Source of the DNA: Plazaster borealis | Lineage: Eukaryota; Echinodermata; Asteroidea; Forcipulatida; Labidiasteridae | Reading direction: 5' to 3' | Length of the DNA stretch: 64,000 bases | Assembly (NCBI GenBank): GCA_021014325.1 | Contig: CM037464.1 | Location: 7,843,127 to 7,907,126, forward strand | Part shown: piece after piece, positions 3,117 to 60,427 of the stretch | Layout: the number at the start of each line of letters is the position of its first letter | Numbering within the stretch: position 1 is the first letter of the stretch | Notes under the pieces: generated by a model | Databases searched by the model: none | Told to the model about the DNA's origin: nothing | Seen by the model: the letters and a program-made list of their open reading frames with translations, nothing else | Made by a program: the position numbers and the translations under genes

Positions 3117-3827
3117 GGCCTGCGCTAAACGTCGAACTTTTGCCGTGTCGAACTCAAATGATTTTCGCACGGCAAAAGTGCGGCAATTAAAACGAATTGG
3201 TGACAAACGTCGAATTTAGTAAAATAGTTTGCCGCACTTAAAGTAATTCAAAATGGCGACGCGGGAGAAAATTGCTAAAGAGTCATGTTTCATGATGTCA
3301 ATTCGAGCTGTGACACTCAAATATTAATGACAAATCATAATGACATTGTTTCCCAACTTAAATGTTGTCATTATTATTACCATCGTTGGTGAGTGGTGTA
3401 TCGTCTTTTTTAAGAGTGTCAGAACAAAATCAATAAGTTTAATTCTGAAATCTACAGATTATGTTTGTTCCAATCAGGAGTTGTTTCCTTTCCCATCCCG
3501 GAACTCTTTGTACTACGGTACTAACAAGGAGAATGTTCACATTATTAGAAAATACAAATAAAACATTTTTCAAAAGTTTTGCGCATGCGTATTCCCAAAG
3601 AGCATCGCCCGACTGAGAATTCAATTTGATTCGACACGGCAAGAGCGCGACGTTTGTCACCACGTCGTGCAACTACCGTGTAGCACGGCAGAGCTTGCCG
3701 TGCTACACGGCAGTGTCGAATTTAAATCAAAGGTTTGCGCTAAACGTCGCTCTTTTGTCGAATTTAATTCATCATTTTCTAATTATTTGAGTTCGACACG
3801 GCAAAAGTGCGACGTTTAGCGCAGGCC
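3117..3827 (+). mobile_element. 711-bp non-autonomous TIR element inserted in the LINE, TA duplication
   Basis: Terminal inverted repeats GGCCTGCGCTAAACGTCG and its complement lie at 3117 and 3810-3827. They are flanked by TA on both sides (3115-3116 and 3828-3829). The motif GACACGGCAAAAGTGCGACG recurs near both ends. The interior has a 15-bp perfect stem at 3676-3690 / 3696-3710 around a 5-nt loop. No coding capacity. The TA target duplication would suit a Tc1/mariner-type donor, but the superfamily is not established. Confidence 0.85.
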
Positions 3828-3829
3828 TA

Positions 3830-20714: not shown

Positions 20715-21295
20715 CTGATTCATGTTTTGGGGGAAACAGGTTCATAATTAACTGTGTTTTTTTCATTTTCAAATTTACAGCTTAAAATTGTCATTATAGT
20801 CCGATAATTGCAATCAAAACAGGATTTTAAAGCATCAAATGTATCTTTTACCTTATTTTCCTCTAAATTGTGAAAAACATGCTCCGGAGTTACAAATCAA
20901 TCTAATTTTTCAAAATGGATAAACTCAACTTATTTGTTGGCAATATAACGCACATTTGAGCAGCAAAGGATAAACAAATCGATCCCTTCCACTTTTTGGC
21001 TATATAGGTTTGAGGAACAAGGGATAGAAAATTCTATCCCCTCCTCTTTTCTGCTGGATTTGAGGAACAAAATATCCCTTCACTTAAATTATAACCACCC
21101 GAACCACAAATAAACTTGTATTTTTGTCAGTTTTCTCATTAATGAAGTGTCATTGTAAATAAAATAAAATGTTGACAATATTTTTCAAAGTGCACCAGTT
21201 TCTTACTTTGTTCCTCCAGAGATTATGTCATGGAGAAAAACAGCATGATTTTAAAATGTTAAGAACAACTTCAAGAAAAAATGCTATATATTACT
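20715..21295 (+). repeat. Segmental duplicate f1, target of the LTR element
   Basis: Matches 42790-44045: CAAATTTACAGCTTAAA, CAATATAACGCACATTT, and two to three units of the TTTGAGGAACAAGGGATA minisatellite that is amplified in the other copy. The match resumes at 38754 beyond the nested insertions (AAAAACTGTAT...AAAAATGA.CCTGTT, compare 44055-44090). So 44.05 kb is a diverged empty site. Confidence 0.8.
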
Positions 21296-21479
21296 TGTTA
21301 TGAGACCCTAATACATGTACATATAATTACGTGTATACAACGCACGCTGTCAATCATTTTCTGTGTGTAAGTCCGTTGACCCTAGTGGGCGGCGCTAATC
21401 CGTTATGAAGGATCTAGAATGATCTAGGCTCTGGAAGTTTGAAGTTAGTTTTAGAACTTTCCAGAAAACAACGCAAATC
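21296..21479 (+). repeat. 5' LTR, first part, ending in target duplication CAAATC
   Basis: Aligns base for base with 37893-38076 of the 3' LTR apart from a few substitutions. The last six bases, CAAATC (21474-21479), are repeated at 32244-32249 on the other side of the nested transposon. Confidence 0.95.
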
Positions 21480-22098
21480 TACGAAGCTGTTTAAGGGACA
21501 TGGTGAATTTTATTTTCAATTTTTCAAACCCGTACGTACGCCTTACTAACGCGTACGTACGCCTTAAGTAACCCGTACGTACGCCTTACTAACGCGTAAG
21601 TACGCCTTAGTAACCCGTACGTACGCCTTACTAACGCGTACGTACGCCTTCTCTAACCCGTACGTACGCCTTACTAACGCGTACGTACGCCTTATGTAAC
21701 CCGTACGTACGCCTTACTAACGCGTACGTACGCCTTATGTAACCCGTACGTACGCCTTATGTAACCCGTACGTACGCCTTACTAACGCGTACGTACGCCT
21801 TATGTAACCCGTACGTACGCCTTACTAACGCGTACGTACGCCTTATGTAACCCGTACGTACGCCTTATGTAACCCGTACGTACGCCTTACTAACGCGTAC
21901 GTACGCCTTATGTAACCCGTACGTACGCCTTACTAACGCGTACGTACGCCTTATGTGACCCGTACTTACGCTTTACTAACGCGTACGTACGACTTATGCA
22001 ACCCATACGTACGCCTTACTAACGCGTACGTACGCCTTATTTAACTCGTACGTACGCCTTACTAACTTTGTTAGTAAGGCGTTTGTACGCCTTACTAA
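21480..22098 (+). repeat. Left inverted end plus subterminal CGTACGTACG array
   Basis: A ~50-bp unique end is followed by about 26 units of 21-22 bp. The core CGTACGTACG is its own reverse complement, followed by CCTTACTAACG or CCTTATGTAACC, the two forms often alternating. Near 22062-22095 one unit is inverted (TTAGTAAGGCG). The array ends just before the HECT gene's 5' region. Confidence 0.95.
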
Positions 22099-22334
22099 CC
22101 TTCACGTGCGATTTGACCCCTGACCTGGCGGCGTGTGTGCAGAGGAGGATCGGAGCACACACTGCAGCACTGCTTTGTTTCTACCCCTTGGTTTCTACGC
22201 GTTACGGGACGTGAGTGCTCAAGTCAAGCCGCCATTCAGAGTGTATTTTGTTGGTTGTAGGACGTGCTCTTAAGTTAAAAAGATCTTCGTTACAACTGCC
22301 ATTTTCTATTACCAACCACCCATCAGCTAGCGTA

Positions 22335-23387
22335 ATGGAAGCGTCACTGTGCAAGTTTGTACGAGAACGTGGGATTGAGGAAAGTGTCATCGATTATATG
22401 ATCAATGAAAAGGTGAGAAATCATTCATATGGTATTAAAATGCCGGCAACTTTTTTGAAATTCCCCAGCAAATTTCAACCGGTACGATAGCAAGCATACA
22501 CTCATCATCCAGCGATGCCTGCCGGGTTACACAGGCTTGCAATGCCTTTTTGGTTCACCTTCGCCGCAACATTTTGTGGGCTACATGTATGTTCAAGTAC
22601 AACACAAAATGGACACTGTAGTTTTATTTATTAGCGTCAGTCTGTAGTCTGAGTATGTCTCCTGCAGAAAGCAACGGCTACGTTATGTACCCCCCAAAAG
22701 CGGTGTACAGATTAGCCTAGAAGTAGAAGCTTGACTGCAAGAGGGAACAATCCTTTTTGGGGGTGGGGGACTCTTGGCGGAGAAGTTCATGTAATTTGAC
22801 TGCTAACTAAAGTAAAGCGTAACAGGTCCTTCAACTTCATGGAGGCATCAACAAATATTACAATAATATTAATAATAGGCTTACGCGGGAATAGTGGAAA
22901 ATGCAAATGGCTACAGCATAACTTAAGTGGGCTGACACCAAACTGCATTTTATCGTTGTTTTAGACCAACAAATCATGATAACTTACCAAACATTAGATC
23001 CAGTGGCATCGGTCAGCCGGATTTATAAAAAGATTTAAAAAGTTTATCAGTGGATTACAAATCATGCATATTTTTTTCAGTCACGTTTTATATTTCTGGT
23101 ATAGTTTACAACTCTTCACAGGGTGATCTAAAGGTCAAGTAGCAAGACAGTTTACCTTAGAAAAATTCGAGAATATAGGAAACATGAAACATATATTTTG
23201 GTCTGAAATGATTACACATTTTGTTATACACATTTTTTTATACATAATTTTGTTGTCTTATTATCCTTAAAAAATATTTATGGACCTACAGGACCAAACG
23301 CATGAATGAAACTCTATTGTTTTACACCATTACTTCTTCTGGGTTTAGGAGTCCTGTTTATTTATTTGTTTATATTTCTATATGTAT

Positions 23388-23462
<75 letters not shown>

Positions 23463-26400
23463 TTCTTGTAAAATTAATTTAAAACTTCAAACTTTCAACT
23501 GTTTTGTCCATACAAATGTTTACACCAATGATATTGCATCTCCTTTAAGTATAAAATGTACAATGAAACACAGTTATTATCCTTTAACTAGAATAAACTG
23601 GTTAGCAACCACTAAATGCATAATCATCTGAATCAATTAAATGTAAACTCTGGTGTGAGCCTTGATTTCCAAAAACCACTCTAAATATGAAATAAACACA
23701 TATTCATAACAATAACAATAATTATAAACCTCAATTATTTAAACAAGTGGCTACACTGAATTACTTATAAAATATAATTAAATCTACTGTTTTTGAGGGG
23801 AAAACACGCAAAACAAAAACAAACGAACATCTCAAACCCATAGAGATGGAGAAAACAACAAAGAAAAAATAACCGGGCGGTTGTAAGTGGGGTGGCGGTG
23901 GGTGATGAAAAAACAACAAGCTGCCTGCTGTATGGCTTGTTTTGTGTTTGTTGTAATGGCGTAGCTAAAGATCAGCGTTAAGCGCACAGACAATGCTGTT
24001 ACTATGTAGGGAAACTTTCCACCAATCGGAGGCGACGACGTGTGGCGCGTTCGCTAGACCCGACCCAATGATCACGAGCCACAACGTGACCCAGTTTACT
24101 CAGGGATCACGTTGTAAAACCAAGCTGCACATTGTATTACTGTTTGTAAACAACACTGTAAGGGATGAACGCAGGATTCCCGTGTGCCATAAACCTGATT
24201 AAGTATGCACTTAATCTTTCCTTTAAAGGCTACTCACAGAGCCTCTACTTATTCAACGAGTTGATAAAAAGGGGCATTTGGGTTATTTTCTTTGCCATGC
24301 CACATTTCGAATCAATTTTATGTTTTTTAAAGGCCAAAATTAATAAAACAGATTGTTCTTACGCTTGGGTTGCAAGCTTTTATAACAAAAGCCAATGTTA
24401 ATTAGTACTGTTTATCAATGTGTTGTACCTACATGTATCAGTATCAAGAAGCATCCTTTGTTCCATGGCTTGACCGGCCAGATGAAACCGGTTTTAATCT
24501 GATACACGGCTTTACGAATCAAAAAATCATTATACTTATAGTCTTTTGCTTATTTAATTTTGTAAATCTTTTAAGACTGTGGCATATTTTGGAGCACCAT
24601 TCATTAAGTGATGGTCCATGTTATTCCATGGTCCTAAAGCGATAGGAGACTAGTCAAAAGTTATTGTCACAATTATAAACATCGATCCCAATAATTCTCC
24701 AATTATGACATAGAGTACTGTTGTTCACTCCATTCCCGTGTTAGGTTTATGCTCAACTTAAAAAAAAAAGTAAAAATATCTATCAGCTGTACCAGCAAAA
24801 ACACCCCGAAATTGTGTTTTGTTACATTCTATTTACATTGTACTTTTTTCTATGTTATTTTTTATCTTCAATGATTAAATTCTCTAGTCTTAATTCGTAT
24901 CAGAGTTAATTTTTAAAATTAAATTTAAATTGTTTATGTTTGCAGATTGACAGTAAAACAATCATTGACATGGACAAAGAGCTGTCACAACTGGCAGAGG
25001 TCATGAAGATTGGTGACAGAATTGCTCTTAAGAGATTCTGCAGTGATGCTCATGCTAAATCAACAGTTTGCAAACCACAGAGTCAGGTTGGCGCAGCCAT
25101 GAGAACAAGAAGACAAAGCCTACTTGATCGACTTAGAAAAGATGTTGTTCAGGTGGAAGATGGGGAGAGCATTTCAGCAAGTACGTCCCAACAGAATGGT
25201 TTAGGCAACACCAATGCTTCAAAGAACAATCGCCGTATCCAGGTTGGATGGATTCATAATGACCGACAGGTCCGGGATCCCAAAGGTGGGGGAGTGAGGA
25301 AACTAGCGGTGGACAAGGACGCAACTATGGACATATTGCTCGAAGTAAGCAAAGCTTTGTTCTTCCGAGATGGGGCTTCAAAAAAGGGCTTCAAAATTGA
25401 TGACTGTGTGAAACTTATCTGCGGGATTTCAGCAATAGCCCCTTGGGAGGAGATGTTACTGTAGGAATGCAATACAAGCAAGAGAAACCTAACGGCATTT
25501 TGAGGTTTTACCTGAACACCAAATCTGAACGTGATGTGTGTGGGAATATGCCTGAGGACGAGGAGGAACTGAAAAAAAAAAGACAAAGAAAACTAAACTT
25601 ACCTTATCTTGCACAGAGGAAGATGATGAAGAAAATGATTTCCTGGCAGCTTTCCCTTTGACTGACAAATTCCAACCTCAAGAGATTGAAGTACAAGAGG
25701 CAGCTCAAGAAGATACTGCTCTAGTCAATGTGATTTGCTACATTGAAGACATTGATAGGGAATCCATTGGAGCGGTTGAACATAATTTAATTGATAGTGC
25801 AACCACAGAGACCCAGCTGGCCTCCGAGTATAAGTTACCAAGTCGGTCACCCACTCCCACCTTATCTACGTCACAAACTCCGCCACCTCATTTACCAACT
25901 CCTCCACCTTATCGCCACCTCGTTCACCAACTCCGCCACCTCGTTCACCAACTCCCCCACCTCGTTCACCAACTCCGCCACCTCATTCGCCACCTCGTTC
26001 ACCAACTCCGCCACCTCGATCACCATCACCAACTCAACCAGCATTTAAGAGTGTATTAAGGGTACATCGGGCAAAAATCCTCTCTGAAATGGTGAATGCA
26101 TTTATAAACCCAGAGATCATGCACACACCCCTGTTATTTGAGTTTGTAGATGAAGCCGGAGCTGACGTACAAGGAGTCTCACGAGAAGCTTACACTGCGT
26201 TTTGGAGTGAATTCTATCTCACCAGTACGTCTGGTGAGACTGAGAGGGTACCATCCATCTTTCCCGAGTTTGGGTTTGAGCAGTGGGCCGCTGTTGGTCG
26301 CATCTTATCAAAAGGGTTTCAAGACCACCGGTTATTTCCAACCCGTCTGTCACCAGCATTCATTTCAGCTCTCGTCCATGGGGAGCATGCAGTTCCTCCC

Positions 26401-27039
26401 CACATGCTTATGGAGGCCTACAAGGCCTATGTATCCCCACTTGATGGGGAAATTATTTCTAAAGCGCTCAGTGGAGAGATGGACAACGATGATCAAGACG
26501 ACTTGCTGGATATACTTTCCAGAGCGGACTGTCATTCTATTCCATCAGGCGATAAGATGCGAGAAACCATGCTACAAGCCGCTCACAAGGAGCTGGTGCA
26601 GGCTCCAAAATATGCTCTTGATGCAATGGCAGTTACAGCCCAAGACTCTCTACAGCTGTTGCTTCCAAATATTGAATCAATCCGTGTGTTGTATGAAGAG
26701 GCAAAGCCATCGGCCAGGAAAGTGATAAAACTGATCAATGCTACACCTACCAGCAGGGGGGAGGAACAATCCCTTGCGTTCCTTAAACAATACATTCGTG
26801 GGCTTGACCTTCCCACATTGAAGAAGTTTCTTAGGCATTGCACAGGGTCTGAAACAATATGCTTCAATTCATTGGACGTGGTGTTCAACCAAAAGAAAAA
26901 GGGGGCAGATAGATATCCTATTGCCCACACATGTGGCCCCACTCTTGAATTACCTGACACATATGCATCATACAATGAACTTCGCTGTGAACTGTCTAAC
27001 ATCTTGAATTCTGGCTATCTCAGAATGGACATTGCATAG
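22335..27039 (+). CDS. SAM-like / Pro-rich / HECT-type E3 ubiquitin ligase carried by the transposon
   Basis: Exon 1 (22335-22412, 26 codons, starts MEASLCKFVRERGIEES) joins in phase 0 to exon 2 (24946-27039; acceptor TTTGCAG). The joined N-terminus looks like a SAM-type domain ending GDRIALKRFC. Then come a charged middle, a block GWIHNDRQVRD...ALFFRDGASKKG...GILRFYLNTK, an acidic segment, TPPPRSP repeats, and a ~300-residue HECT domain from about 26089. The catalytic site is AHTCGPTLELP, Cys codon 26932-26934. Frame breaks near 25440 (CCCC), 25570 (A10) and 25910 (repeat) each equal one missing base, so this is a recent pseudogene or has read errors. HECT proteins pass ubiquitin to substrates through a cysteine thioester. 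The polyadenylation signal is at 27110. Confidence 0.85.
22413..24945 (+). other. HECT intron 1, with (TTTA)n microsatellite at 23356-23465
   Basis: Bounded by AAAAG|GTGAG and TTTGCAG|ATTG. No second gene is evident. The microsatellite creates a long low-complexity frame (23302-23631) that should be ignored. Confidence 0.8.
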
Positions 27040-27207
27040 GCAAAATGATTTGCTCTGTGTCAGTTGTGTATTGTCAGTTGAACAAAGACTCAAGTGCAGG
27101 CCCATCATAAATAAATTACTGTATATGTTTGTAAATGTACATGGCTAGCAGTATGTTCTTATCTTACTGAACGACTTTAACCCAGTGTTTCAGCAGTCTT
27201 TGCATAT

Positions 27208-27378
27208 AATAGACCTTTATCGTGGCGCGGCCATCTTGATTTTCTCCCATTCAAATCAATGTAACCGAATCGAGGCTGGGAGGAGAAATAGTCTGGTTAC
27301 TTTTTGTATTGGCATTCATTACTGTTATTGAATACAGGGAACATGACGAAGATGGTGGCAGCACGATAAAGGTCTATT
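27208..27378. mobile_element. 171-bp MITE inside the transposon
   Basis: Inverted ends AATAGACCTTTATCGTG...; the right end reads CACGATAAAGGTCTATT. Inner parts also pair loosely (GGCCATCTTGATTTTCTCCC against GAAGATGGTGGC). It lies in the intergenic space behind the HECT gene. Confidence 0.85.
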
Positions 27379-29303
27379 AAGGGTGGTTAGAGCAGTAATT
27401 GAGAAAAAAATTACTTCTATCATATCGGTTTGCCTAAATCCTCTGCAAACCTCATGTTATGTGTTTCCAATCAAGTATTTTAATTTAGTTAGCCTGGGTC
27501 TATATTACTCAAATCATTGACTTACAATCTAGGAGGTCTGCTATGTCCAGCTGACTACAAACTTAAGGGTAGTTTTAAAATGTATGGTATTCTAAAAACA
27601 CTCTGTAAGTGACATTAACAAAACCGATTTGCCTAGAACATGAGTGAACCCAGAGATGACCTACGAAGCAAATTATCAACTAAATCGTAATTTTAAGTAG
27701 GCCTATTGAAACTTGTTTGCAAACCTTATTAGTATTCAATATGATTCTTCCAAGTAACTTTTTGGTTCACATCAGCTATTTTACAAAATGTTACTTTTGT
27801 TGCTTGGCAGGTTTAGTGTTTTGGGAGTTTTTTGTTCACCACCCTGCTTGAGTACAATTTAATGCATTTATTTATAGTGATCATAATGAAACAAATGATA
27901 AATAGTTTTGCTGAAATTTATTGATTTTAAATGTGACTTTGTGTTACACAAGTTTTGTTTAGATAATGTTATGGGAGTGTTAGGTAATATTTTGGGCAGT
28001 TGCCTAATACCTCATTGTTATCAACCATTTATAAAATAGCATAATTAAAATTTAAAAAAAAAATTAGCTGATTTTTGTTTTGACCAATTATTACTTTATT
28101 TAACGCATTAGTTGTGTTGCCCCAAAGGAACCTTTTGTTTATGTAGATCTTTTTATTGATTATACATTTTTATAATCCTTCAATTAGTCGGATGATGTTA
28201 TGGATAAGATTAGTTTTTTAACTATGTTCTGTATCCTTGTTTTATTTTTTAATGTGATTCTTCCAAGTTAATTGTATTGATTCACATAGGCTATTTTACA
28301 AAACGTTACTTGACTTATTGCTTGGCAGTTTTAGTGTTATGAGAGTTTTTTGTTCACCACCCTGCTCAAGAGAGTTATGTGCAATTATCTGCAATTAGCA
28401 TAATGAAACAACTGATAAATAGAGTTTATGTCAGCATGTTGTTAACCAAATTTGTAATCAACATAAATAACAACAAGTTATATCAATAAAAACAAATTAT
28501 AGAGAATTTATAATTATGAGAGTTATACATTAAGTTTATGTCAGCATGTTGTTAACCACATTTGTAATCAACATAAATTACAACAATCAATAAAAACAAA
28601 TTATAAAGAATTTTGAACTGTTTTTGAGTAAATGTTACTTTATTTCACACATTGGGTTTTTTCCACCACATATTTTTTCACTGATCTTACTTAGGCGTAT
28701 GGTCAACTATTGATTCAGTAAGATTGTATTTTTATTTATCATTAATCAACTTGATCAAACTAAGGCTATCTTAATCATATTCACCTTTTATCCAATTGAC
28801 ATGATAACCTTATTTTCATCATATAAGACTAGACCGGACTATTTTGCCTGCCTTCCAACCTCGGTTTCGTTGCATTTGTTTTAATGGAAGAAGCAGGATG
28901 ACTGCACAAGGACAACAGATTTTTTTAAATTACCTTTTCACTCTTCTTGGTTTACTTTTATTCTGACAGGGGTAGTCTCCTTGATTATTTTAATTCGTAT
29001 TCACTCTAACATGAAAGCTTATGTTTTCACCAACTTACAACACGAAGAAAATTCAACAGTATGGTACATCCTGAGAAACTGTTTTGAATTAAATCGTCAT
29101 GGATAAGAACTTTGTTTATTTTTGTAATTTTCATAAAAATTAAGTTACGGGAAAAACAAAACCTAATGAAGTTTGACCATTGTCCTTACAACAAAGCAAT
29201 TTAAATGCACAGAACTTACAATTTGATAAAAACAATGTTCCCCATAAGGTTATGTTCCCCTTCCAGTGTACGCACTGTGAGCCCATCTGCGAATTACACT
29301 CTT
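27379..29303. other. AT-rich spacer between the two convergent genes, with direct repeats
   Basis: About 27735-27860 and 28250-28370 are diverged direct copies (TGATTCTTCCAAGT, TTTTTTGTTCACCACCCTGCT). 28425-28520 and 28530-28620 are a second pair (TTATGTCAGCATGTTGTTAA). No coding signal on either strand. Confidence 0.7.
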
Positions 29304-31241
29304 TTAGAGAAGCTGCAAAATGAGATATTTCAATGTATGATATAAATCCACGGCATTATGAGGAGTGGATGGCGGATCAAGGTCATGCTCTTCCATAAGT
29401 CCACAGCAGAGATGACAGAAGTCTTCGTAACAAGGAATGTCACTCTTGAATGTGCATTCATCAATGCAGACTTCGATGTCATCCTTTTCCACTGCCACAA
29501 ATTGATCATGTGCGTTGTAAAGCTCTGGCAATGCATATAGAACAACTGGTCTCCCAGTAGGTTCAGTTGCGTTGCGGGTAGACTGGATTTTGTGGTAGTT
29601 CCAAACACTTACAATATCATCCAGTTCTTCCTACAATTATGAATAATCATGATACACTTTATCCGGGCCTGTGGTAAGGGCAGGATTTGGCAAAAGGGCA
29701 AACAATTGAAAAATATTAATTTTCATCCCTGGTTCATCAATCATTCATCCCATTTCATCCCTCCCCACTCATTCATTAGGCCCCCTAAAAGGGCAAAAAA
29801 TTGAAAAATATTAATTTTCATCCCTGGTTCATCAATCATTCATCCCATTTCATCCCTCCCCACTCATTCATTAGGCCCCCTATAATTCTAATTTTCGTAA
29901 AATATCACATGGAAAGTTAAAAAAGGGCCAACAAGAAACATAGATGTGATAAATATGAAGAACAGTATAATGAAACATAATCAAAATATCACATTTAATT
30001 GTTTTTTATTATTTGATTGCAGAATAAGTAAAAAAACATTCTCTGAGTGAAAATGAGCGACATCAAAGTGAAATGAATAATTGACTGTTGCCAAAGAAAA
30101 CAATTCTTCGAATATTCGATGTTTTAAACATCGTGGAAACAAAATATCGTTTGAAGTGCCATTACCAATTGGTTTGAGAGGAAATGTCAATCACGTTTAA
30201 TAAAAATCCGAGCCAGTTTCATACAAGGCTCCGTTATTGTATACCTGAATTATTCCCATGAAGCAGAACTGTACGAGTTGTTTGTCCATAAAACACCCGG
30301 AGAAATCTCCTTCATCCTTCAGCTCACCAAAGAGGTTCATCCAAAAAGTAGAACATTCTTTCCGTAATACAGACCACCAGGCTTCGATGCGCTGATTAGC
30401 AATGCTCTGTCCGACCATGAAGCTTTTCTCGTCTGCAAAGGAATCGTTGCTGTTCCGCCTGATTGAACAAAAACAAAACCTATATTTAATGGCATAATTT
30501 AATATCTAGTCCACAGTCCCACTGGGAGGGAAATAGCTGGGGTAAGGATGGGGGCTCTGGATGGGGGGGGGGGGTCATAAAGGACTCTTTAGTTAGTTAT
30601 TCCTAAAGTGATATGGCTACTTACCTTAAAAAGGTGTGCATGGCTTTTAACACAACATTTTCCGTGCCTCTATCGGCGCGCATTCGCCGTGGACAGCCAC
30701 CGAGTTCCACTATGGCGTTTATCATGTATCCTGCGATGACTTTGGGGTCACTGCTGGTAGTTCCAGCTTCTAACCAAATTATCTTCCTCGAAAAACCATC
30801 TATGCAGCCATTGATGCATATGCCATATGGTTTCAATTTATCGTATGAGTCCACATGCCAGATATAGCTGGGCCCAACTCCTCTGTATTTCCGACGCCTC
30901 AGACGCCTGCGTTTACGTTGTGCAACACCTGTAGGATCGAGTAGTTGAAGTAAAAGTCGCACTGCGTCCTGGGAAACAGTAAGACCATTTTGTATGCACT
31001 TAAAATGCATCCATCTGTACCCGTGCATCTGTCCCGACTTGTCTAATTGATCACGAATGAATCGAATTACGTCCTCAGTGCTGCTGGTGTGTTTCCTGCG
31101 GTAGAGATGACTCTTTTTCAATATTCTTTTGAGATGCCGCAAGCTCAGTGTCATGTCGTGCTTTGCGGCTAAAACACACAGTATTTCTCTGTAGCTAAGT
31201 CCGCATTTGAAATACATTTCCACCAAACGGTCTCGATGCAT
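29304..31241 (-). CDS. DDE integrase-like transposase, three exons, 385 aa, intact
   Basis: Exons on the minus strand are 31241-30625 (ATG at 31241; upstream acceptor at 31251), 30458-30245 and 29630-29304. Donors and acceptors are GT-AG and the phases join exactly with no stop. Residues ~1-60 form a helical, probably DNA-binding region (YREILCVLAAKH, LRHLKRILKK). The basic QRKRRRLRRRKYR precedes the catalytic core: WHVDSYDKLKPYG (D131), RADRGTEN (D190), QRIEAWWSVLRKE (E231). After TGRPVVLYALPELY, the C-terminus has a Cys-rich tail, CIDECTF...CYEDFCHLCCGL. The family matches multicopy 'integrase core' proteins of fish and invertebrates. In cis with TIRs and target duplications, it is the obvious mobilising enzyme. 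The first exon(s) may be only 5' UTR. Confidence 0.9.
29690..29880 (+). repeat. Two-copy ~93-bp tandem duplication
   Basis: AAAAGGGCAAACAATTGAAA and following sequence through CATTAGGCCCCCTA is repeated almost identically, within transposase intron 2. Confidence 0.9.
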
Positions 31242-31250
31242 TATGTATCC

Positions 31251-31720
31251 CTGCAAAATTAATGTATAAAACATCTGAAAAGTTATACATTACCGCTATG
31301 ACTTACTGTTGCCTTTCCCGTTTACGATAAAAATGACATGGCTTTCATTTTAATAGTTTTAGTTAATTGTATGTATTCCGTACGGTACAGTATTAAACTA
31401 CTATTGTAAAGACAGAAAATTAAGGACATAATTGAATACTATTATTTGCACAATGTAGGTGTACACAAATTAAGGTGGATGGGAATGATGGGGATGTCTA
31501 TGGTGACTGAAAAACATGTGACGGAGATGGGGGTTAAATAATGATGATAATGATGATCATTGAGACTATTATGAAGGTGATGGTGAATACTATGACAAAG
31601 GCGGGTTACAATACCTGGTAAATGCTAGGAGTGAGGAAGACAACAGTTCCTGGCCTGGCAGATGTTTTGCGGAAGGACATACTAACCGATCATCTGTTCC
31701 TCGTTGCCAAAGTTGTATCT
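31251..31720 (-). other. Upstream region of the transposase gene
   Basis: 470 bp between the first coding exon and the right array. A splice acceptor (TAATTTTGCAG at 31251-31261, minus strand) implies a 5' exon here or at the array edge. A GATGATG-rich patch lies near 31530. No TATA box stands out. Confidence 0.5.
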
Positions 31721-32243
31721 TGGGTTACATGAAGCGTACGTACGCGTTAGTAAGGCGTACGTACGGGTTACATAAGGCGTACGTACGCGTTAGTAAGGCG
31801 TACGTACGGGTTACATAAGGCGTACGTACGCGTCAATAAGGCGTACGTACGCGTTAGTAAGGCGTACGTACGGGTTACTTAAGGCGTACGTACGCGTTAG
31901 TAAGGCGTACGTACGGGTTACTAAGGCGTACGTACGCGTTAGTAAGGCGTACGTACGGATTACTTAAGGCGTACGTACGCGTTAATAAGGCGTACATACG
32001 CGTTAGTAAGGCGTACGTACGGGTTACTTAAGGCGTACGTACGCGTTAATAAGGCGTACGTACGGGTTAGTAAGGCGTACGTACGGGTTACATAAGGCGT
32101 ACGTACGCGTTTACAAGGCGTACGTACGGGTTAGTAAGGCGTACGTACGGGTTAGAGAAGGCGTACGTACGCGTTAGTAAGGCGTACGTACGGGTTTGAA
32201 AAATTGAAAATAAAATTTACCATGTCCCTTAAACAGCTTCGTA
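31721..32243 (-). repeat. Right subterminal CGTACGTACG array plus inverted end
   Basis: About 21 units of the same 21-22 bp repeat, inverted relative to the left array (GGCGTACGTACG alternating with GTTAGTAA and GTTACATAA spacers). They are followed by the 51-bp unique end 32193-32243, one mismatch from the left end. Confidence 0.95.
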
Positions 32244-32924
32244 CAAATCCTTTATATACAGGCTGGGGATCAATCTTCGAGGGGACACAAATACTCAAGA
32301 CTGGTGGAAGCTACGACTTCTGTGATTGTGATTCAACTCGTTGGAGGAGCTTTTGGTAGAGTTCGCTTTTGACCGAGTGCAGTTAAAGAGCTTAATTTAA
32401 ATCCGGAAAGGACAGTTTCGAACTTAATCTACAGTTCGGTATGTTGGGGTCTTCTTCCCCATATTTTGTGGCGGGTGTCAGATTGTGTACCCGTTGTTGC
32501 TTCGTCTTCTTCTGGACATTTTTCGGAGTGAGTTCGCCCCGTGATAGCTCATAGTCACATCGGCAAAGAACTGTTTTATCGCCCCTGGAGTTGATCGTTT
32601 TAGAGCCAGTGTATGTGATCCTCGCTGTATCTTCTGTTGCCGTGATCCTCGCCTGTATTTCATCCCGGTTGACGTATTAGCCTGTGAGATTACTTATTTT
32701 GTATACGATCTATTTTAATGTACACTTGTTTTACTCAATCATTGTACGTTTGTTAAACCCAATAGGTATTTGAAGTGGCCGATAGTTTCATTATTAAATC
32801 ACTTTGATTCTGTGTTTTTTACATCCGTTTCACCTTGTTTGATTTCTTTGTTGCATCTGAGAAAATTCAGGCTTTTTGAGTGAATTATATTCACGGATAG
32901 TTTGGAGATTTTTGGATCGTAACA
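32244..32924 (+). repeat. 5' LTR, second part
   Basis: Begins with the second CAAATC and continues CTTTATATACAGGC as in the 3' LTR (38071-38753). Ends GGATCGTAACA. Differences from the 3' LTR are few (for example TATGTTGG against TATTTTGG). Confidence 0.95.
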
Positions 32925-32927
32925 AAT

Positions 32928-32945
32928 TGGGGGCCCGTCCGGGAA
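32928..32945 (+). promoter_or_regulatory. Primer-binding site, tRNA-Pro type
   Basis: TGGGGGCCCGTCCGGGAA lies three bases after the LTR. It is very close to the tRNA-Pro primer site used by murine leukaemia-type retroviruses, so tRNA-Pro priming is likely. Confidence 0.7.
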
Positions 32946-33028
32946 ATCGAACAAAAATAAGCCGTATATTTTTGTGTACAATTGTCAAACAAGGTTGCAC
33001 GTTTTATAGTCTGTAGTGTTGTATAAAA

Positions 33029-34300
33029 ATGGCTAGTGAGTTTGATGCACAAGCTTTCGTGGATTCTGAAGATTTTGTCAATCGAGAAGTTGCAACAGTT
33101 ATCAAAAGACGAGTTGCACGGAGTTGCCAAACACGTTCATGGAGAAATTTCTAGAAGTGCCAAAAAGGCAAAACTAGTGAACGTTCTAGCGGGAGTACTG
33201 AACTTAGAGTTGTCTCAGTCTCAGCAGACTTTTGATCGAGAAATTGAGCTTGCAAAAATTGAGCTTGAAAAGGAAAGGCTCAGGCTTGAGTTTGAAGAAA
33301 AAGAAAGAGAAAAGAAAGAGAAAGTCAAGAAAGAGAAAAAGATAAAGAAAGAGAACCTGAACTACGAATTAAGGCTTGAACTCAAAGAAAAGGAAAAGGA
33401 ACGAGAATTTGAACTGCGTAAGCTTGAATTAGAAGTGGGTTCAAAGAAAGGCAAGGAGAGAACTCCAATTGATTTTGATCTAGCGAAAAACGTGAGGTTG
33501 GTGCCAAAATTCAACGAACACGATGTTGATACGTATTTTCTGTCGTTTGAGAAGATTGCCAAAAATCTTAGTTGGCCTGAGAAATATTGGCCTTTGCTCC
33601 TGCAGAGCACTTTTGTGGGTAAGGCTCAGAAAGTCTATGCCACACTTTCAGAGGACCAATGTAGTAAATATTCTACGGTTAAGGCATCCATTTTAAATGC
33701 GTATGATTTGGTTCCTGAGGCATAGACAGAAATTTAGAAAACTGACTAGATTGAATGGCCAGACCTTTGTTGAATTCGCTAGACAGAAGGAAATTGTTTT
33801 TGATCGATGGTATCAGTCTCTCAAATGTGAGAAAAATTTTGAGGAGTTAAAAGAAGTGGTCCTCATGGAAGAATTCAAAACCAGTGTCCCTCTGAGTATC
33901 AAAACCCATTTGGAAGAACACAAGATCACCAAATTAAAGAAAGCTGCAGTGGTAGCTGATGATTATGAATTAACTCATAAAATGAGTATGGGCAAAACTA
34001 ATTTCCAGTCAAAGGGTTTTTACAAAAACACTGAGAAGGGCAAGTCAGGTTCCGAGGCACAGTCTGGCACTGAAAGTCCAAAGAAGCCTTCATCACCGAG
34101 TGGAGCCAAGGACGACCAGAAGAAGTCTTTTCCTCCGTGTGATTACTGTCATAAGAAGGGTCACACGAAGGCGAGATGTTTCAAGTTCATCGCTGACGAG
34201 CGAGGGCGGTCTGAAAAGCCTGCGCTTTTGTCCGTAAGGACACTCTACTTCGTAGGAAGTCCGGTGAGGCCGATGGCAACCGTGTTTCTTCTTCGAAGAT
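33029..34300 (+). pseudogene. Gmr1-like gag (capsid and zinc knuckle), frameshifted
   Basis: ATG 33029 (MASEFDAQAFV) is followed by a frame change near 33075. Then come EKLQQLSKDELHGVAKH, a long Glu/Lys-rich coiled-coil-like stretch, and the capsid-like DVDTYFLSFEKIAKNL...W. A second shift occurs at about 33720, and then NGQTFVEFARQKEIVFDRW. A zinc knuckle CDYCHKKGHTKARC (C-x2-C-x4-H-x4-C) lies near 34135. Two frame breaks disable it. Confidence 0.85.
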
Positions 34301-34358
34301 ATCTGATGAAATCAACAAAGTTGATTAAATCTACACAGATTTTGTTCATTGTGGTGAT

Positions 34359-34740
34359 GTGTCGTGTGTGTCTGATGTTGCCGACAGTCCAGTTGTTATC
34401 CTAAGGGATACAGGCGCGTCACAGTCACTGATGCTGGAGGATGTGTTGTCATTGTCTCCAGACAGTTCGCTAAATGCGACAATGTTGATTCAAGGTATTG
34501 GGGGTAATTTTATGCCTGTCCCGTTGCATAGGGTAAATTTGAAATGTGATTTGTTCACTGGCCCTGTGGATGTTGGAGTTGTTCCTAGTCTACCGATGAA
34601 AGGTGTCGGATTATTGCTAGGTAATGACGTTGCGGGAGGTAAAGTGTCGGCATCCCCTATTGTCTCTGGTGAACCTGTGGATGAGCCAGAAATTCATGCT
34701 TTGGAGGAGGAGTTTCCAGAAATCTTCCCCGAATGTGCAG
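34359..34740 (+). pseudogene. Retroelement aspartic protease
   Basis: VVILRDTGASQSLM carries the D-T-G-A active site. GVGLLLGNDVAGG matches the second conserved part of retropepsins. The frame differs from the end of gag, and then runs on toward integrase to the TGA at 35181-35183. Confidence 0.8.
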
Positions 34741-34889
34741 TGACGAGATCTCAGATGAAGCAAACGGAAAAGGAGGTTGCAGAGTCAGTGCCTATAGAGG
34801 AGGACTCTGGTGTTTGGCTGGCTGAAACCTTTTTTAGTGATTTAGAAGAAAAGGAGGGAGTGTCTCAAGATGCTAAGTTTAGCCGATCC

Positions 34890-36140
34890 TCGCTGATAGA
34901 GCAGCAGAAAGCGGACCCAGATCTGAGGAAGCTCACCCAGACAGCGTGTTCTGAGGAAGAGGCTCAAGGGGTTCCGGAATGCTACTACGTCAAGTCTGGC
35001 GTGTTAATGAGGAAATGGAGACCTACCCAGAAACCAGCTGATGAAGAATGGAGTATTGTTCATCAAATTGTTGTTCCTCCATGTTACCGTGATGAGATCT
35101 TGAGAATCGCTCACGAAATTCCGGTTGTGGGTCATCTTGGTATCAGAAAGACTCAAGCTAGAGTCATGGCTCATTTTTATTGACCTAAGCTACATCAAGA
35201 TGTGGTGGAATTCTGCAAGACGTGCCATACGTGTCAGATGGTGGGAAAGCCACAGCCATCGATCAAGCCTGCACCGATGATACCGATTCCTGCGTTTGAT
35301 GAGCCGTTTACGAGAGTCCTGGTGGATTGTGTGGGTCCTCTACCGCGGACGAAGTCCGGGCATCAGTATTTGTTGACCATAATGGATTTGTCAACCAGAT
35401 TTCCAGAGGCCATTCCACTGAGGAAGATAACAGCCAAAGTTGTTGTTGAGGCTCTTATGCAGTTTTTCACAAGATATGGTTTACCAAAAGAAGTGCAGTC
35501 CGATCAGGGGTCAAACTTCATGTCGGGTGTGTTTCAGGAAGTTCTGCGTGAGCTGGGAATCAAGCAGTTAAAATCATCTGCATATCATCCGCAGTCTCAA
35601 GGAGCTCTAGAGAGGTACCACCAAACCCTCAAGAATATGATAAGGGCTTACTGCGAGGATTTCCAAGAAGATTGGGACAAAGGAATTCCCTTCCTGTTGT
35701 TTGCAACCAGGGACTCGCCGAACGAGTCAACTGGTTTTACTCCGTTTGAGTTGGTCTACGGTCATGAGGTGAGGGGGCCTTTGAAACTCATTAAGGAGAT
35801 GTTTTTGTCAGAGGATGAGAAGACCAATCTGCTCGACTATGTGTCGAACTTTAAGGAGAGGTTGTCTAGGGCATGTTCTGTGGCACAAGAACATCTGAAA
35901 GTGTCTCAACGGGTCATGAAGACGAGAGCAGACAGGAAATCTGAAGTCCGCATCTTTAAACCCGGCGAAAAAGTGCTAGTGCTGTTGCCTCTGCCTGGCG
36001 ACCCCCTTAAAGCAAAGTTTAGTGGGCCCTACTGTGTCAAAAAGAAACTCAATGATGTCAATTACGTAATCAGTACCCCAGACCGAAGAAAGAACCAAAG
36101 AGTTTGTCATGTTAACATGCTCAAGAAGTATTATGAGCGT
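34890..36140 (+). pseudogene. Integrase placed upstream of reverse transcriptase
   Basis: The HHCC zinc-binding region (VVGHLGIRKT ... FCKTCHTCQ) is interrupted by TGA 35181-35183 where Trp is expected. The core has VDCVGPL, QSDQGSNF and SQGALERYHQ as the D, D, E triad. A GPY/F-like module follows (FSGPYCVKKKLNDVNYVIS). Its position before the reverse transcriptase defines the Gmr1 arrangement. Confidence 0.9.
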
Positions 36141-36239
36141 GATAATTCTGGCCAGCCTGTGGGGGTAGCTGTCATTGAGGCAAAACCTGACGATGACAAC
36201 TCATGCAATGAAGACTTGGAGACAAAAACGTCTGAACTT

Positions 36240-37680
36240 GAATTTTTAGCTGTTCAGCTTTCTAACTCTGAAATTCTTGCTATTTTGGACGAAATCCTTG
36301 GTTATTTGCACAATGACCAACGGAAAGATTTATCAAACCTACTCCAGAGGTACAAGCAAGTTTGTTCTGACAAACCAGGTCGTACGTCGGTAGCAGTTCA
36401 TGATGTTGATGTAGGAAAGTCAAGACCTATAAAACAAGCTCCCTACCGACTTAACCCGGACAAGTTAGCCAAGGTTCGGGAGGAGGTTAAATTCATGATA
36501 AAACATGACATTATTGAACCTAGTCAGAGTTCTTGGAGTTCTCCCATTGTCATGGTACCAAAGCCAGACGGTACTCTTAGATTTTTTTATAGATTATAGA
36601 AAAGTCAATGCAGAAACTAAGACAGATTCTTATCCGATCCCGAGGTTGGAAGATTGTATTGATCGAGTGGGAAATTCGGCGTTTGTCAGTAAAATAGATC
36701 TGTTGAAAGGTTATTGGCAGGTGCCCTTGACTGACCGAGCCAAAGAAATTTCCGCATTTGTGACACCCGATGGTCTCTACCAATGTAAAACAATGCCCTT
36801 TGGGATGAAAAACGCCCCGGCTACGTTTCAGAGAATGATGAGCCAAGTCATTGCTGGGCTGGACAATTGTGTTGTCTATATTGATGACATTTTGGTATAC
36901 AGCGATAACTGGAAAGACCATCTGAAACACTTGGGTGCCCTGTTTGATAAGCTTTCTAAAGCAAACTTGGTGGCGAATCTCAAAAAGAGTGAGTTTGCCA
37001 AAGCAACGGTGACCTACTTAGGTCATGTGGTCGGTCAGGGTCACGTGCTACCCCGAGTAGCAAAGATCAAAAGTATTCAAGAATTTCCCATGCCCACAGG
37101 AAAGAGAGAATTGATAAGATTCCTGGGTATGAGTGGATTTTACAGAAAGTTTGTTCCAAACTTTAGCACCATTGCGACTCCATTGACTCAACTTTTACAG
37201 AAGAATGTAAAGTTTGTTTGGTCTGACTCTTGTCAAAAGGCGTTTGATAATTTAAAGGCCATTCTGACAAACGAACCAGTTCTGGCTGTACCAAATTTTG
37301 ACAAGGCGTTCAGAATAGCCATTGACGCCAGTGATGTTGGTGTCGGAGCAGTTTTGCTCCAAGATGATGAGTCTGGAATCGAGCGACCTATCAGTTACTT
37401 TTCAAAGAAACTGAACAAATACCAGGCAAAATACTCCACCATCGAAAAAGAGGCGTTAGGTTTAGTTCTTGCCCTACAACACTTTGAGGTGTATGTAACG
37501 AATGGTGCTGGGGAGACGATCATTTATACTGATCATAACCCACTTGTGGTTTTGGAGAAATTCAAAACCAAGAACCAGAGGTTATTCCGCTGGAGTTTGA
37601 TTTTGCAACCATATCCACTCAAGATTGTTCATATCGCTAGGAAGAGCAATGTAATTGCGGATGCTCTGTCCAGAGTTTAG
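36240..37680 (+). pseudogene. Reverse transcriptase and RNase H
   Basis: The frame from the integrase continues through a linker to PIKQAPYRLNP and WSSPIVMVPKPDGTLR. One extra T in the run near 36585 shifts it into the frame with IDYRKVNAETKTDSYPIPR, SKIDLLKGYWQV, MPFGMKNAPATFQRMM and the catalytic YIDDILVYS. RNase H follows with AIDASDVGVGAVL, EKEALGLVLAL and YTDHNPL, ending VIADALSRV at TAG 37678-37680. Apart from the single shift it is well preserved. Confidence 0.9.
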
Positions 37681-37879
37681 AATAATGTACTTAAACACAA
37701 TTGGTATTATTTCTGATGTGCTAAACCAGTAACAGTGTTTGTGAGATTATTGCTGTTAGCAGATTATGGTAAAATGTCTAAGTCGGACGTAACTAAATTG
37801 CTTAAATTTTAAATAATTTTGAAATTTATGTTAACATTCCTTTTTGAAACGAAAATTTCCTTATGTAAATTTTCTTATT

Positions 37880-38753
37880 TTATGGGGGGAGATGTTATGA
37901 GACCCTAATACATGTACATGTAATTACGTGTATACAACGCACGCTGTCAATCATTTTCTGTGTGTAAGTCCGTTGACCCTAGTGGGCGGCGCTTATCCGT
38001 TATGAAGGATCTAGAATGATCTAGGCTCTGGAAGTTTGAAGTTAGTTTTAGAACTTTCCAGAAAACAACACAAATCCTTTATATACAGGCTGGGGATCAA
38101 TCTTCGAGGGGACACAAATACTCAAGACTGGTGGAAGCTACGACTTCTGTGATTGTGATTCAACTCGTTGGAGGAGCTTTTGGTAGAGTTCGCTTTTGAC
38201 CGAGTGCAGTTAAAGAGCTTAATTTAAATCCGGAAAGGACAGTTTCGAACTTAATCTACAGTTCGGTATTTTGGGGTCTTCTTCCCCATATTTTGTGGCG
38301 GGTGTCAGATTGTGTACCCGTTGTTGCTTCGTCTTCTTCTGGACATTTTTCGGAGTGAGTTCGCCCCGTGATAGCTCATAGTCACATCGGCAAAGAACTG
38401 TTTTACCGCCCCTGGAGTTGATCGTTTTATAGAGCCAGTGTATGTGATCCTCGCTGTATCTTCTGTTGCCGTGATCCTCGCCTGTATTTCATCCCGGTTG
38501 ACGTATTAGCCTGTGAGATTACTTATTTTGTATACGATCTATTTTAATGTACACTTGTTTTACTCAATCATTGTACGTTTGTTAAACCCAATAGGTATTT
38601 GAAGTGGCCGATAGTTTCATTATTAAATCACTTTGATTCTGTGTTTTTTACATCCGTGTCACCTTGTTTGATTTCTTTGTTGCATCTGAGAAAATTCAGG
38701 CTTTTTGAGTGATTTATATTCACGGATAGTTTGGAGATTTGTGGATCGTAACA
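37880..38753 (+). repeat. Polypurine tract and 3' LTR
   Basis: ATGGGGGGAGA precedes the LTR at 37893 (TGTTATGAG...) which ends GTAACA at 38753. This LTR is uninterrupted and so records the pre-insertion target AACAACACAAATCCTTTATA for the nested transposon. Confidence 0.95.
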
Positions 38754-42590: not shown

Positions 42591-42789
42591 CTCTTTATCG
42601 CTGTACAGTTTTCCTAGCTCCTTCGAAATTGCCTTGAAACTGGCTCGCTTCTGTGGATCTTTATGCCAACAACTCATCATAATAAAGTATCTGAATTATT
42701 AACATCAAATTATGAGTTGTTTTACTAATACTCTTTGCAAGAAACCAACATCACGTAAGTAAAATAAGACAATCTGCTTGTAACAGGTT

Positions 42790-44050
42790 CATATTTAACT
42801 TTAGTTTTGGTTATTGTTCAAATTTACAGCTTAAAGTTATCATTTTAGTCCAAAAATTGCTATCGAAACAGGATTTTAAGCAACAAATTGCTCGTTTACC
42901 AGCCCCCCCCCCACAAAAAAAATAAATAAAAAAAATGTGAAAAACAAGCTCCAGATTTTACATAACAATCTAATTCTGAGCTAACCAGTTGCAAATGAAT
43001 AAGTTTGTAAGCAATATAACGCACATTTTCAAAACATTTCACTAGTAAGTAGAAGATTCATTTTAGGAACAAAGAATGACGATATATATCCCCTCCTCTT
43101 CGCCGGCTGGGTTTGAGCAACAAGGGATAAAAATAATCTATGGATAGACAAGGGATAACAAATCTATCCCCTCCTCTTTTCGGCTGGGTTTGAGGAACAA
43201 GGGATAACAAATCTATGCCCTCCTCTTCGCCGGCTGGGTTTGAGCAACAAAGGTAACAAAATTTATCCCCTCCTTTTTCAGCTGGGTTTGAGGAACAAAG
43301 GATAGACAAATCTATGCCCTCCTCTTTTCGGCTGGGTTTGAGGAACAACGGATAAACAAATATATCCCCTCCTCTTCACCGGCTGGGTTTGAGCCACATG
43401 GGATAAACAATATATATCCCCTCCTCTTCGCCAGCTGGGTTTGAGGAACAAGGGATAAACAAATCTTCCCCTCCTCTTTTCAGCTGGGTTAGAGGAACAA
43501 AGGATAGACAAATCTATCCCCTCCTCTTCACCGGCTGGGTTTGAGGAACAAGGGATAACAAATTTTATCCCCTCCTCTTCGCCGGCAGGGTTTAAGGATC
43601 AACGGATACAACAATTTATTAACTCCTCTTTTCGGCTGGGTTTGAGGATCAAGGGATAAAACAATCTATCCCCTCCTCTTCGGCGGCTGGGTTTGAGCCA
43701 CAACGGATAAACAAAAATTATCCCCTTACTTAAATTATTACCACTCGATCCACAAATTAGACTCTCTTTTTGCCAGCTTTTCCCAATAATGAAGCATACA
43801 TTTTCAATAAACGGTGTGTGTATTTTTTTCTCCTCAATATGATGATGCAAAAACAGTTTGGAGTACAAAATGTGGGAAATAATGTTTTGCTAACACAAAG
43901 GTATACATAAAAAGACTGTTAAAAAAATGTTTTAAAAAGTAAACAAAATTCTTACTTTGTTCCCCCAGGAATAGGCCTATTTTATGGGAAAACAGCATGA
44001 TTTTAACATTTTGAAAACAACTTCAAGAAAAGTTGCTTTATATTACCAAA
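42790..44050 (+). repeat. Segmental duplicate f2 with amplified ~50-bp minisatellite (43075-43740)
   Basis: Same sequence as 20715-21295, but the unit CCCCTCCTCTTCGCCGGCTG plus GGTTTGAGGAACAAGGGATA is expanded to about 13 copies instead of two or three. It lies in the kinase intron between the second and third exons. The repeat's long minus-strand frames are artefacts. Confidence 0.9.
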
Positions 44051-60017: not shown

Positions 60018-60407
60018 AGGGGGTTCAGGCAGGCTGGGGCGTTGCGGCTGGCGAAGTCAGAGGGAATATTGGCGGAGCCAGCGAGGTGACGTACGGTCGC
60101 TTGGAAGCGGTTGACAGTAGAGAGGAATGTGGAGACGTGCGGACTCGATGAAAACTTGCCACGGCACAACTTTTCGTAAGCCTGCAAGGTTTGCTGTCGG
60201 TGAGGATGGATGCATTGCGAGTAGATTGGATGAGATAAGGGCTGAAGTGCTTGGTTGATGCAGCGATTGAAAGGGCCTCGACTTCACAGGGCAACCTAGT
60301 GGGTTGGCGGCTTTGGAGTTTGGTGCTGAAGAAACCAGCCAAGCATAGTTTGTTTTGGCGGGTAACGTAAAGAGTGGCACTGATGCAATGGTTCTTGACG
60401 GCGCCAT
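59990..60407 (-). pseudogene. RNase H fragment
   Basis: AGFFSTKLQSRQPTRLPCEV followed by EALSIAASTKHFSPYL and ILTDSKPC, then (other frame) RHLAGSANIPSDFASRNAP. This is the order of a Ty3/gypsy RNase H and its tether. Confidence 0.65.
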
Positions 60408-60427
60408 CAGTAACGATCCTTAACTGG

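What the first reader, a model, noticed from the sequence alone, without database searches (positions are those of the whole stretch)
21480..32243. Complete 10.76-kb two-gene DNA transposon: DDE transposase plus SAM-HECT ubiquitin ligase
Seen: perfect 6-bp duplication CAAATC, near-perfect inverted ends, inverted subterminal arrays, an intact three-exon transposase and a SAM-like/HECT gene, all between the ends. A ubiquitin-ligase gene as regular cargo would be unusual. It could tune transposase stability or host defence, which is inference. The long-puzzling multicopy SAM-HECT genes of fish and marine invertebrates could then be transposon genes.
Basis: partly seen in the sequence, partly recalled or inferred. 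Interest (0 to 1): 0.95.

Follow-up and report, generated by a model that had tools for sequence, protein, structure and literature searches.

The report
Transposon carrying a ubiquitin ligase gene
A recently inserted animal "jumping gene" carries, next to the enzyme that moves it, a second gene that looks like a ubiquitin-attaching enzyme; whether its sister copies carry the same gene could not be checked here.

Summary
Window 21480-32243 (10,764 bp) is a complete DNA transposon: 6-bp duplication CAAATC, ends matching at 69 of 70 bases, inverted subterminal arrays of CGTACGTACG, and an intact 385-aa three-exon DDE transposase (D131, D190, E231). It lies in the 5' LTR of a Gypsy-type retrotransposon; the 3' LTR is an empty site with a single CAAATC, which fixes both boundaries. 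The LTRs differ at 8 of 859 sites, so the insertion is young. TA..TA termini and a 6-bp duplication fit the IS3EU/GingerRoot superfamily. The second gene encodes a full HECT domain (PDB fold match; catalytic-type Cys kept), but its frame changes at least twice here. The 'SAM' label found no support. Hints that this HECT family is mobile: clusters of 30 and 64 member sequences, and 2 of 36 pairs of fish relatives 93-97% identical across orders; against, 16 of 27 listed relatives are single-member clusters. The decisive test, other full-length copies in the same genome, could not be run (16 of 16 requests unanswered), so 'regular cargo' is likely but unproven. Seven HECT searches of an open-access library found no paper linking HECT to DNA transposons; Repbase was not available.

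The parts
21474..21479 (.). left copy of the 6-bp target-site duplication CAAATC
21480..21549 (+). left terminal inverted repeat (starts TACGAAGCTG; 69 of 70 bases match the right end)
21527..22094 (+). left subterminal array, palindromic CGTACGTACG mostly every 21-22 bp (22 exact units)
22335..22412 (+). HECT gene exon 1 (weakly supported; SAM-like by eye only), GT donor at 22413
24946..25910 (+). HECT gene exon 2, N-terminal part; frame changes near 25404-25425 and again before the HECT frame, probably near 25569-25660 and 25834-25910 (described, not mended; a short intron in the linker is not excluded)
25834..27039 (+). HECT gene exon 2, open frame with proline-rich repeat and complete HECT domain (26041-27036), conserved Cys in AHTCGP
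27207..27379 (.). 173-bp palindromic MITE-like insertion nested between the two genes (18-bp inverted ends)
29304..29630 (-). transposase exon 3
30245..30458 (-). transposase exon 2 (catalytic E231)
30625..31241 (-). transposase exon 1 (start Met, catalytic D131 and D190; PF24764)
31730..32196 (-). right subterminal array (21 exact CGTACGTACG units)
32174..32243 (-). right terminal inverted repeat, ends ..GTA
32244..32249 (.). right copy of the target-site duplication CAAATC
37893..38753 (+). 3' LTR of the host retrotransposon: uninterrupted (empty) version of the target, single CAAATC at 38071-38076

Best explanation
This is a young, probably autonomous cut-and-paste DNA transposon of the IS3EU/GingerRoot kind whose resident genes are a DDE transposase and a HECT-type ubiquitin ligase. 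Shown: boundaries, duplication, empty site, intact transposase frame with DDE triad, HECT domain with its cysteine, both genes inside the ends and reading inward from opposite arrays. Inferred: the transposase binds the CGTACGTACG arrays and tips, cuts the element out and inserts it with 6-bp staggered joining. The HECT protein moves as a permanent accessory gene and helps the element spread by ubiquitinating either a host silencing or repair factor or the transposase itself. I think a host target more likely, by analogy with the TET/JBP and alpha-kinase genes that fungal IS3EU elements carry. In this copy the HECT frame is broken or mis-assembled, so an intact ligase would have to come from other copies.
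For: Ends, arrays and duplication. Empty site in the 3' LTR (79 of 80 bases match around the junction) and LTR divergence of 8 in 859. Intact three-exon transposase, DDE invariant in the 23 aligned rows, weak NCBIfam kinship to IS481 (E 2.5e-6) and IS3 (E 1e-5) transposases. IS3EU defined by TA..TA termini and usually 6-bp TSDs (PMC10045372, passages). HECT: Pfam E 1.7e-10, AlphaFold pLDDT 87.8, Foldseek to HUWE1, NEDD4 and UBR5 HECT at E 2e-10 to 1e-8, Cys aligned with the HTC of solved HECTs. No inverted repeat found framing the HECT gene alone. Mobile-like behaviour of the HECT family: two clusters of 30 and 64 member sequences; 96.6% identity between a gymnotiform and a characiform fish and 93.4% between a frogfish and a wrasse. 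Precedent for accessory genes in IS3EU (PMC12730594, passages).
Against: No second copy carrying both genes was seen; the genome search did not complete. The HECT frame changes at least twice here while the transposase is intact. The HECT search listed 27 relatives against 1232 for the transposase, and 16 of the 27 are single-member clusters. Only 2 of 36 fish pairs exceed 90% identity, and there was no host-gene control. By eye, no contig length listed for a HECT hit recurs among the listed transposase hits (a weak test, because only the best 120 of 1232 and of 826 rows are shown).
Confidence: 0.6

Rival explanations
1. One-off capture: an ordinary IS3EU transposon picked up a neighbouring copy of a multicopy host HECT gene. 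The HECT gene is a passenger without function for the element and is decaying.
For: Frame changes in the HECT gene beside an intact transposase; far fewer HECT than transposase relatives listed; 16 of 27 HECT rows are single-member clusters.
Against: The gene keeps a full HECT domain and probably its own first exon and intron, starts about 0.25 kb inside the left array and reads inward, mirroring the transposase. Some relatives form large clusters, and 2 of 36 fish pairs are 93-97% identical across orders.
Confidence: 0.25
2. Not a rival to the main reading but to 'decay': the HECT gene is a living part of the element, and its frame breaks are assembly indels rather than mutations.
For: The insertion is young: it post-dates a retrotransposon whose LTRs differ at only 0.9%, leaving little time for several indels. 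A run of ten A (25572-25581) lies where the second frame ends and a proline-codon repeat lies where the last begins. The equally young host retrotransposon also reads in shifting frames. An uninterrupted 688-aa relative exists, with a 30-member cluster.
Against: No reads or second assembly to compare. The parent copy may already have been broken before this jump. The transposase shows no such indel. Retrotransposon frame shifts can be programmed. A short intron in the linker is not excluded.
Confidence: 0.5
3. The HECT gene is itself a separate mobile unit nested inside the transposon.
For: The HECT family looks mobile in some fish.
Against: A scan for ungapped inverted repeats (at least 12 matches, at most 2 mismatches; left arm 22100-22336, right arm 27040-29300) found none. 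Units without inverted ends are not excluded.
Confidence: 0.04
4. Chance or assembly artefact: the ends and the two genes do not form one unit.
For: None found.
Against: The 3' LTR matches the joined flanks at 79 of 80 bases around the junction, with one CAAATC; 24-bp tips and exact array units occur nowhere else in the window.
Confidence: 0.01

Closest known systems
[quoted passage not shown] PMC10045372)
   Same: TA..TA termini, 6-bp target duplication, DDE transposase distantly like prokaryotic IS3/IS481 transposases, no integrase HHCC zinc motif before the core.
   Different: 10.8 kb with long palindromic subterminal arrays and a HECT gene; that text has 0 hits for 'HECT' and for 'subterminal'. 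Placement on a tree with reference IS3EU proteins could not be done.
Fungal IS3EU elements that carry TET/JBP dioxygenase and alpha-kinase genes (PMC12730594)
   Same: IS3EU transposon with accessory enzyme genes beside the transposase; there transposase and alpha-kinase face in opposite orientations, as transposase and HECT do here.
   Different: Accessory genes are a dioxygenase and a kinase, hosts are fungi; 0 hits for HECT or ubiquitin in that text.
HECT-domain proteins of fish named (e.g. Phoxinus R3I94_010191, Astyanax LOC111189939)
   Same: 42-45% identical over the HECT part (9 named fish rows); in the full-length rows the same layout: N-terminus, conserved middle domain, linker, C-terminal HECT.
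   Different: Mostly listed as uncharacterised or hypothetical; whether they lie inside transposons is unknown.
Animal HECT E3 families (HUWE1, UBR5, NEDD4; Marin 2010, PMC2837046)
   Same: HECT fold and catalytic-type cysteine.
   Different: Only 12-18% identity to the 50 solved HECT chains shown. It was not compared subfamily by subfamily with that survey; the passages I saw name no SAM-HECT and no word beginning 'transpos'.

Membership tests
IS3EU/GingerRoot | TA..TA termini | tested here: met
   Ends TAC..GTA; definition from PMC10045372 passages
IS3EU/GingerRoot | target-site duplication usually 6 bp | tested here: met
   CAAATC on both sides, single copy in the empty site
IS3EU/GingerRoot | DDE transposase of the IS3/IS481/retroviral-integrase group | tested here: met
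   PF24764 E 2.9e-15; D131/D190/E231 invariant in 23 rows; NCBIfam IS481 2.5e-6 and IS3 1e-5, both far below their curated cut-offs
IS3EU/GingerRoot | no HHCC integrase motif before the catalytic core | tested here: met
   No C-x2-C in residues 1-128; no zinc-domain match in Pfam for exon 1, only a Clr5-like match below its cut-off
IS3EU/GingerRoot | transposase groups with reference IS3EU proteins on a tree | not testable with these tools
   Repbase proteins are not held; look-ups in supplementary files are capped at 0
Ginger1 / Ginger2 | 4-bp (Ginger1) or 4-5-bp (Ginger2) target duplication | tested here: not met
   6 bp; lengths from PMC10045372
HECT E3 ubiquitin ligase | HECT fold | tested here: met
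   (best Foldseek TM-score 0.67-0.70 by query length; many rows lower with high rmsd, as lobes differ in orientation or fit)
HECT E3 ubiquitin ligase | catalytic cysteine in the C-lobe | tested here: met
   AHTCGP aligned with the HTC motif of solved HECTs; Cys in at least 90% of 26 rows, two rows being truncated before it
HECT E3 ubiquitin ligase | ubiquitin transfer activity | not testable with these tools
   needs an assay
SAM domain at the N-terminus | match to a SAM profile or fold | tested here: inconclusive
   No Pfam SAM match up to E 10 for three sequences; best PDB profile hits were death-domain chains at E 0.88-1.1; AlphaFold model of a fish relative shows helices there at low confidence
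regular cargo of this transposon family | several full-length copies carry both genes | not tested
   The genome search unanswered in 16 of 16 identical requests

The most novel reading that the evidence does not exclude
The multicopy HECT-type ubiquitin ligase genes of fish and marine invertebrates are not host gene expansions but the second gene of IS3EU-type transposons, a transposon-borne ubiquitin ligase family that spreads between species with its carrier.
Probability: 0.4. Interest if true: 0.82.

Novelty: new variant of a known kind. Interest (0 to 1): 0.6.

Why it matters
Eukaryotic DNA transposons with accessory enzymes are known, and fungal IS3EU elements carry DNA-demethylase and kinase genes. 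A HECT ubiquitin ligase would point to protein turnover as another process that a transposon can bring with it. It would also offer a simple explanation for near-identical ligase genes found in distantly related aquatic animals, one that can be tested in any good genome assembly by looking for the TAC..GTA ends and 6-bp duplications around them.

Tried and rejected
Nested-unit idea: scanned for inverted repeats framing the HECT gene alone; none within the limits of that scan. A chance origin is excluded by the empty site. Copies elsewhere: scans of viral contigs with the HECT protein, HECT alignment, transposase alignment and a 22-base tip gave no relative. The HECT alignment gave none in genome contigs. 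The transposase alignment gave two prokaryote-MAG contigs of 3.8 kb with distant relatives and no HECT match at E 1e-3. SAM assignment: no support. Ginger1, Ginger2 and Polinton were considered: duplication length excludes the Gingers, and none of the 8 frames of the element scanned matched a Polinton-type gene (other frames were not scanned). PDB by sequence gave nothing convincing for the transposase. The pdb_via list for the full-length fish relative was filled by its HECT part, so its middle and N-terminal parts are untested there; NCBIfam gave nothing for the HECT domain. In Pfam scans of 10 HECT relatives, 2 (P0005, P0025) fall below the HECT cut-off. Literature: 10 searches. Seven held HECT: six returned nothing and one paper, unrelated by title, not read. 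One search (ubiquitin ligase with DNA transposons and TSDs) returned one review on retrotransposon restriction, not read. (IS3EU, GingerRoot) listed 35 and 4 papers, of which I looked into two (passages only). Marin 2010 has no word beginning 'transpos' (passages only; located by a recalled DOI).
Full report
WHAT IS THERE. The interval 21480-32243 (10,764 bp) starts TACGAAGCTGTTTAAGGGACATGG and ends with its inverse; the first 70 bases of the two ends differ at one position. It is flanked by CAAATC at 21474-21479 and 32244-32249. Inside each end lies an array of the self-complementary 10-mer CGTACGTACG, mostly 21-22 bp apart, about two turns of the helix: 22 exact units on the left and 21 on the right, none elsewhere in the window (92 near-matches of a 15-mer against 0.07 expected). 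The 24-bp tip occurs only at the two ends.

THE EMPTY SITE. A repeat search paired 32243-32542 with 38070-38369 and 32598-32897 with 38427-38726. These are parts of the LTRs of a Gypsy-type retrotransposon (21296-38753, TGTTATG..GTAACA ends, 4-bp duplication TACT) into whose 5' LTR the transposon jumped. The 3' LTR (37893-38753) runs through the target without interruption and has CAAATC once, at 38071. Joined flanks of 200 bases each match it with 17 mismatches of 400; 13 of these lie in the 16 bases outside the LTR, 3 in the left 184 bases and 1 in the right 200. This settles both boundaries and the 6-bp duplication. Excluding the insert, the LTRs differ at 8 of 859 aligned sites plus 2 gap bases. 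The transposon is absent from the 3' LTR, so it arrived after the retrotransposon did, and it is therefore young.

THE TRANSPOSASE. On the minus strand, exons 31241-30625, 30458-30245 and 29630-29304, with GT-AG introns of 166 and 614 bp, give 385 aa without a stop. Pfam PF24764 (integrase core) matches exon 1 at E 2.9e-15. D131, D190 and E231 are invariant in the 23 aligned rows. NCBIfam shows faint kinship with IS481 and IS3 transposases. The protein search found 1232 relatives at E 1e-3 or better; the 120 shown include named fish, frog, beetle, mollusc and echinoderm proteins. On a tree of 34 chosen rows the window lies in an 11-row group of unnamed sequences and one Apostichopus (sea cucumber) protein, so the host may be an echinoderm or another marine invertebrate; this is inference.

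THE HECT GENE. On the plus strand, exon 1 is 22335-22412 (weak: matches at E 0.45 and 0.96) and exon 2 begins at 24946. Homologues match 24946-25404 in one frame, 25425-25568 in a second, and 25903-27036 in the first again. Between about 25660 and 25830 only the third frame is free of stops, with one weak match near its end (25847-25924, E 0.78). So there are at least two frame changes and probably three, unless a short intron lies in the linker. The final stretch codes for a full HECT domain: Pfam E 1.7e-10, AlphaFold mean pLDDT 87.8, Foldseek best HUWE1, E 2.4e-10, TM-score 0.67 by query length. The cysteine in AHTCGP aligns with the HTC of solved HECT ligases. The N-terminal 'SAM' label is unproven: no Pfam SAM hit for three sequences, no convincing PDB profile hit, helices of low confidence in the model of a fish relative (mean pLDDT 65.5). 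A conserved middle domain of mixed strands and helices is modelled at 127-223 of that relative with better confidence.

IS THE HECT GENE PART OF THE ELEMENT'S LIFE? For: it lies between proven ends, starts about 0.25 kb inside the left array and reads inward, as the transposase does from the right. No inverted repeat was found framing it alone. Of 27 HECT relatives, two stand for clusters of 30 and 64 member sequences (P0005, P0007), though members may include one gene sequenced many times. Of 36 pairs among nine named fish relatives, two are nearly identical across orders: Brachyhypopomus (Gymnotiformes) and Astyanax (Characiformes) 575 of 595 residues, with 257 of 270 in the N-terminal half; Antennarius (Lophiiformes) and Xyrichtys (Labriformes) 566 of 606. 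That is what genes moving between species would show, although I had no host-gene control. Against: frames are broken here; no second two-gene copy was seen; 16 of the 27 HECT rows are single-member clusters; 27 HECT relatives against 1232 transposase relatives, though length limits and introns make the two counts hard to compare. The youth of the insertion, a run of ten A and a codon repeat at the likely break points, and the shifting frames of the equally young host retrotransposon make assembly indels a fair alternative to decay.

COMPARISON WITH WHAT IS KNOWN. PMC10045372 (passages read) states that complete IS3EU families always have TA..TA termini and usually 6-bp TSDs, and treats GingerRoot with it. 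The element meets both. PMC12730594 (passages read) reports that all TET-bearing fungal IS3EU families have a TET/JBP gene between transposase and alpha-kinase, the last two in opposite orientations. So accessory genes in IS3EU are known; HECT and ubiquitin are not mentioned in that text. Seven literature searches with HECT gave no paper joining it with IS3EU or DNA transposons. Repbase itself is not held and may already list such an element.

MECHANISM. Transposition by the DDE transposase acting on tips and arrays is inferred from the anatomy and the empty site. The HECT role is inference: protein turnover of a host silencing or repair factor (my preference), or of the transposase.

VERDICT.

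Noticed in passing
21296-38753: Gypsy-type LTR retrotransposon that hosts the insertion; integrase frame (35184-36599) lies upstream of reverse transcriptase/RNase H (36502-37680), an unusual order that I recall from Gmr1-type elements; its long frames shift several times although the LTRs differ at only 8 of 859 sites.
   Followed up: partly
27207-27379: 173-bp palindromic MITE-like insertion with 18-bp inverted ends (TAATAGACCTTTATCGTG) nested between the two genes of the transposon; no flanking duplication was found by the script.
   Followed up: partly
29692-29882: 95-bp tandem duplication, 98-99% identical, inside transposase intron 2.
   Followed up: no
1341-5471: Non-LTR retrotransposon remains: endonuclease, reverse transcriptase and (below cut-off) zf-RVT matches.
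   Followed up: no
60028-60558: Minus-strand RNase H-like fragment of another LTR-type element.
   Followed up: no
20735-21294 and 42782-44046: Flank left of the retrotransposon shares pieces, mostly 72-83% alike, with a region rich in 50-bp tandem repeats.
   Followed up: no
P0007 residues 127-223 (HECT relative): Conserved middle domain (..GGGTR..LRFYL..) of the HECT family with a strand/helix pattern that could be ubiquitin-like; no Pfam match above its cut-off there in the 10 proteins scanned.
   Followed up: partly
L002: Contig in a sponge-symbiont MAG holds a transposase of this kind broken into pieces, probably sponge DNA binned with the bacterium.
   Followed up: no
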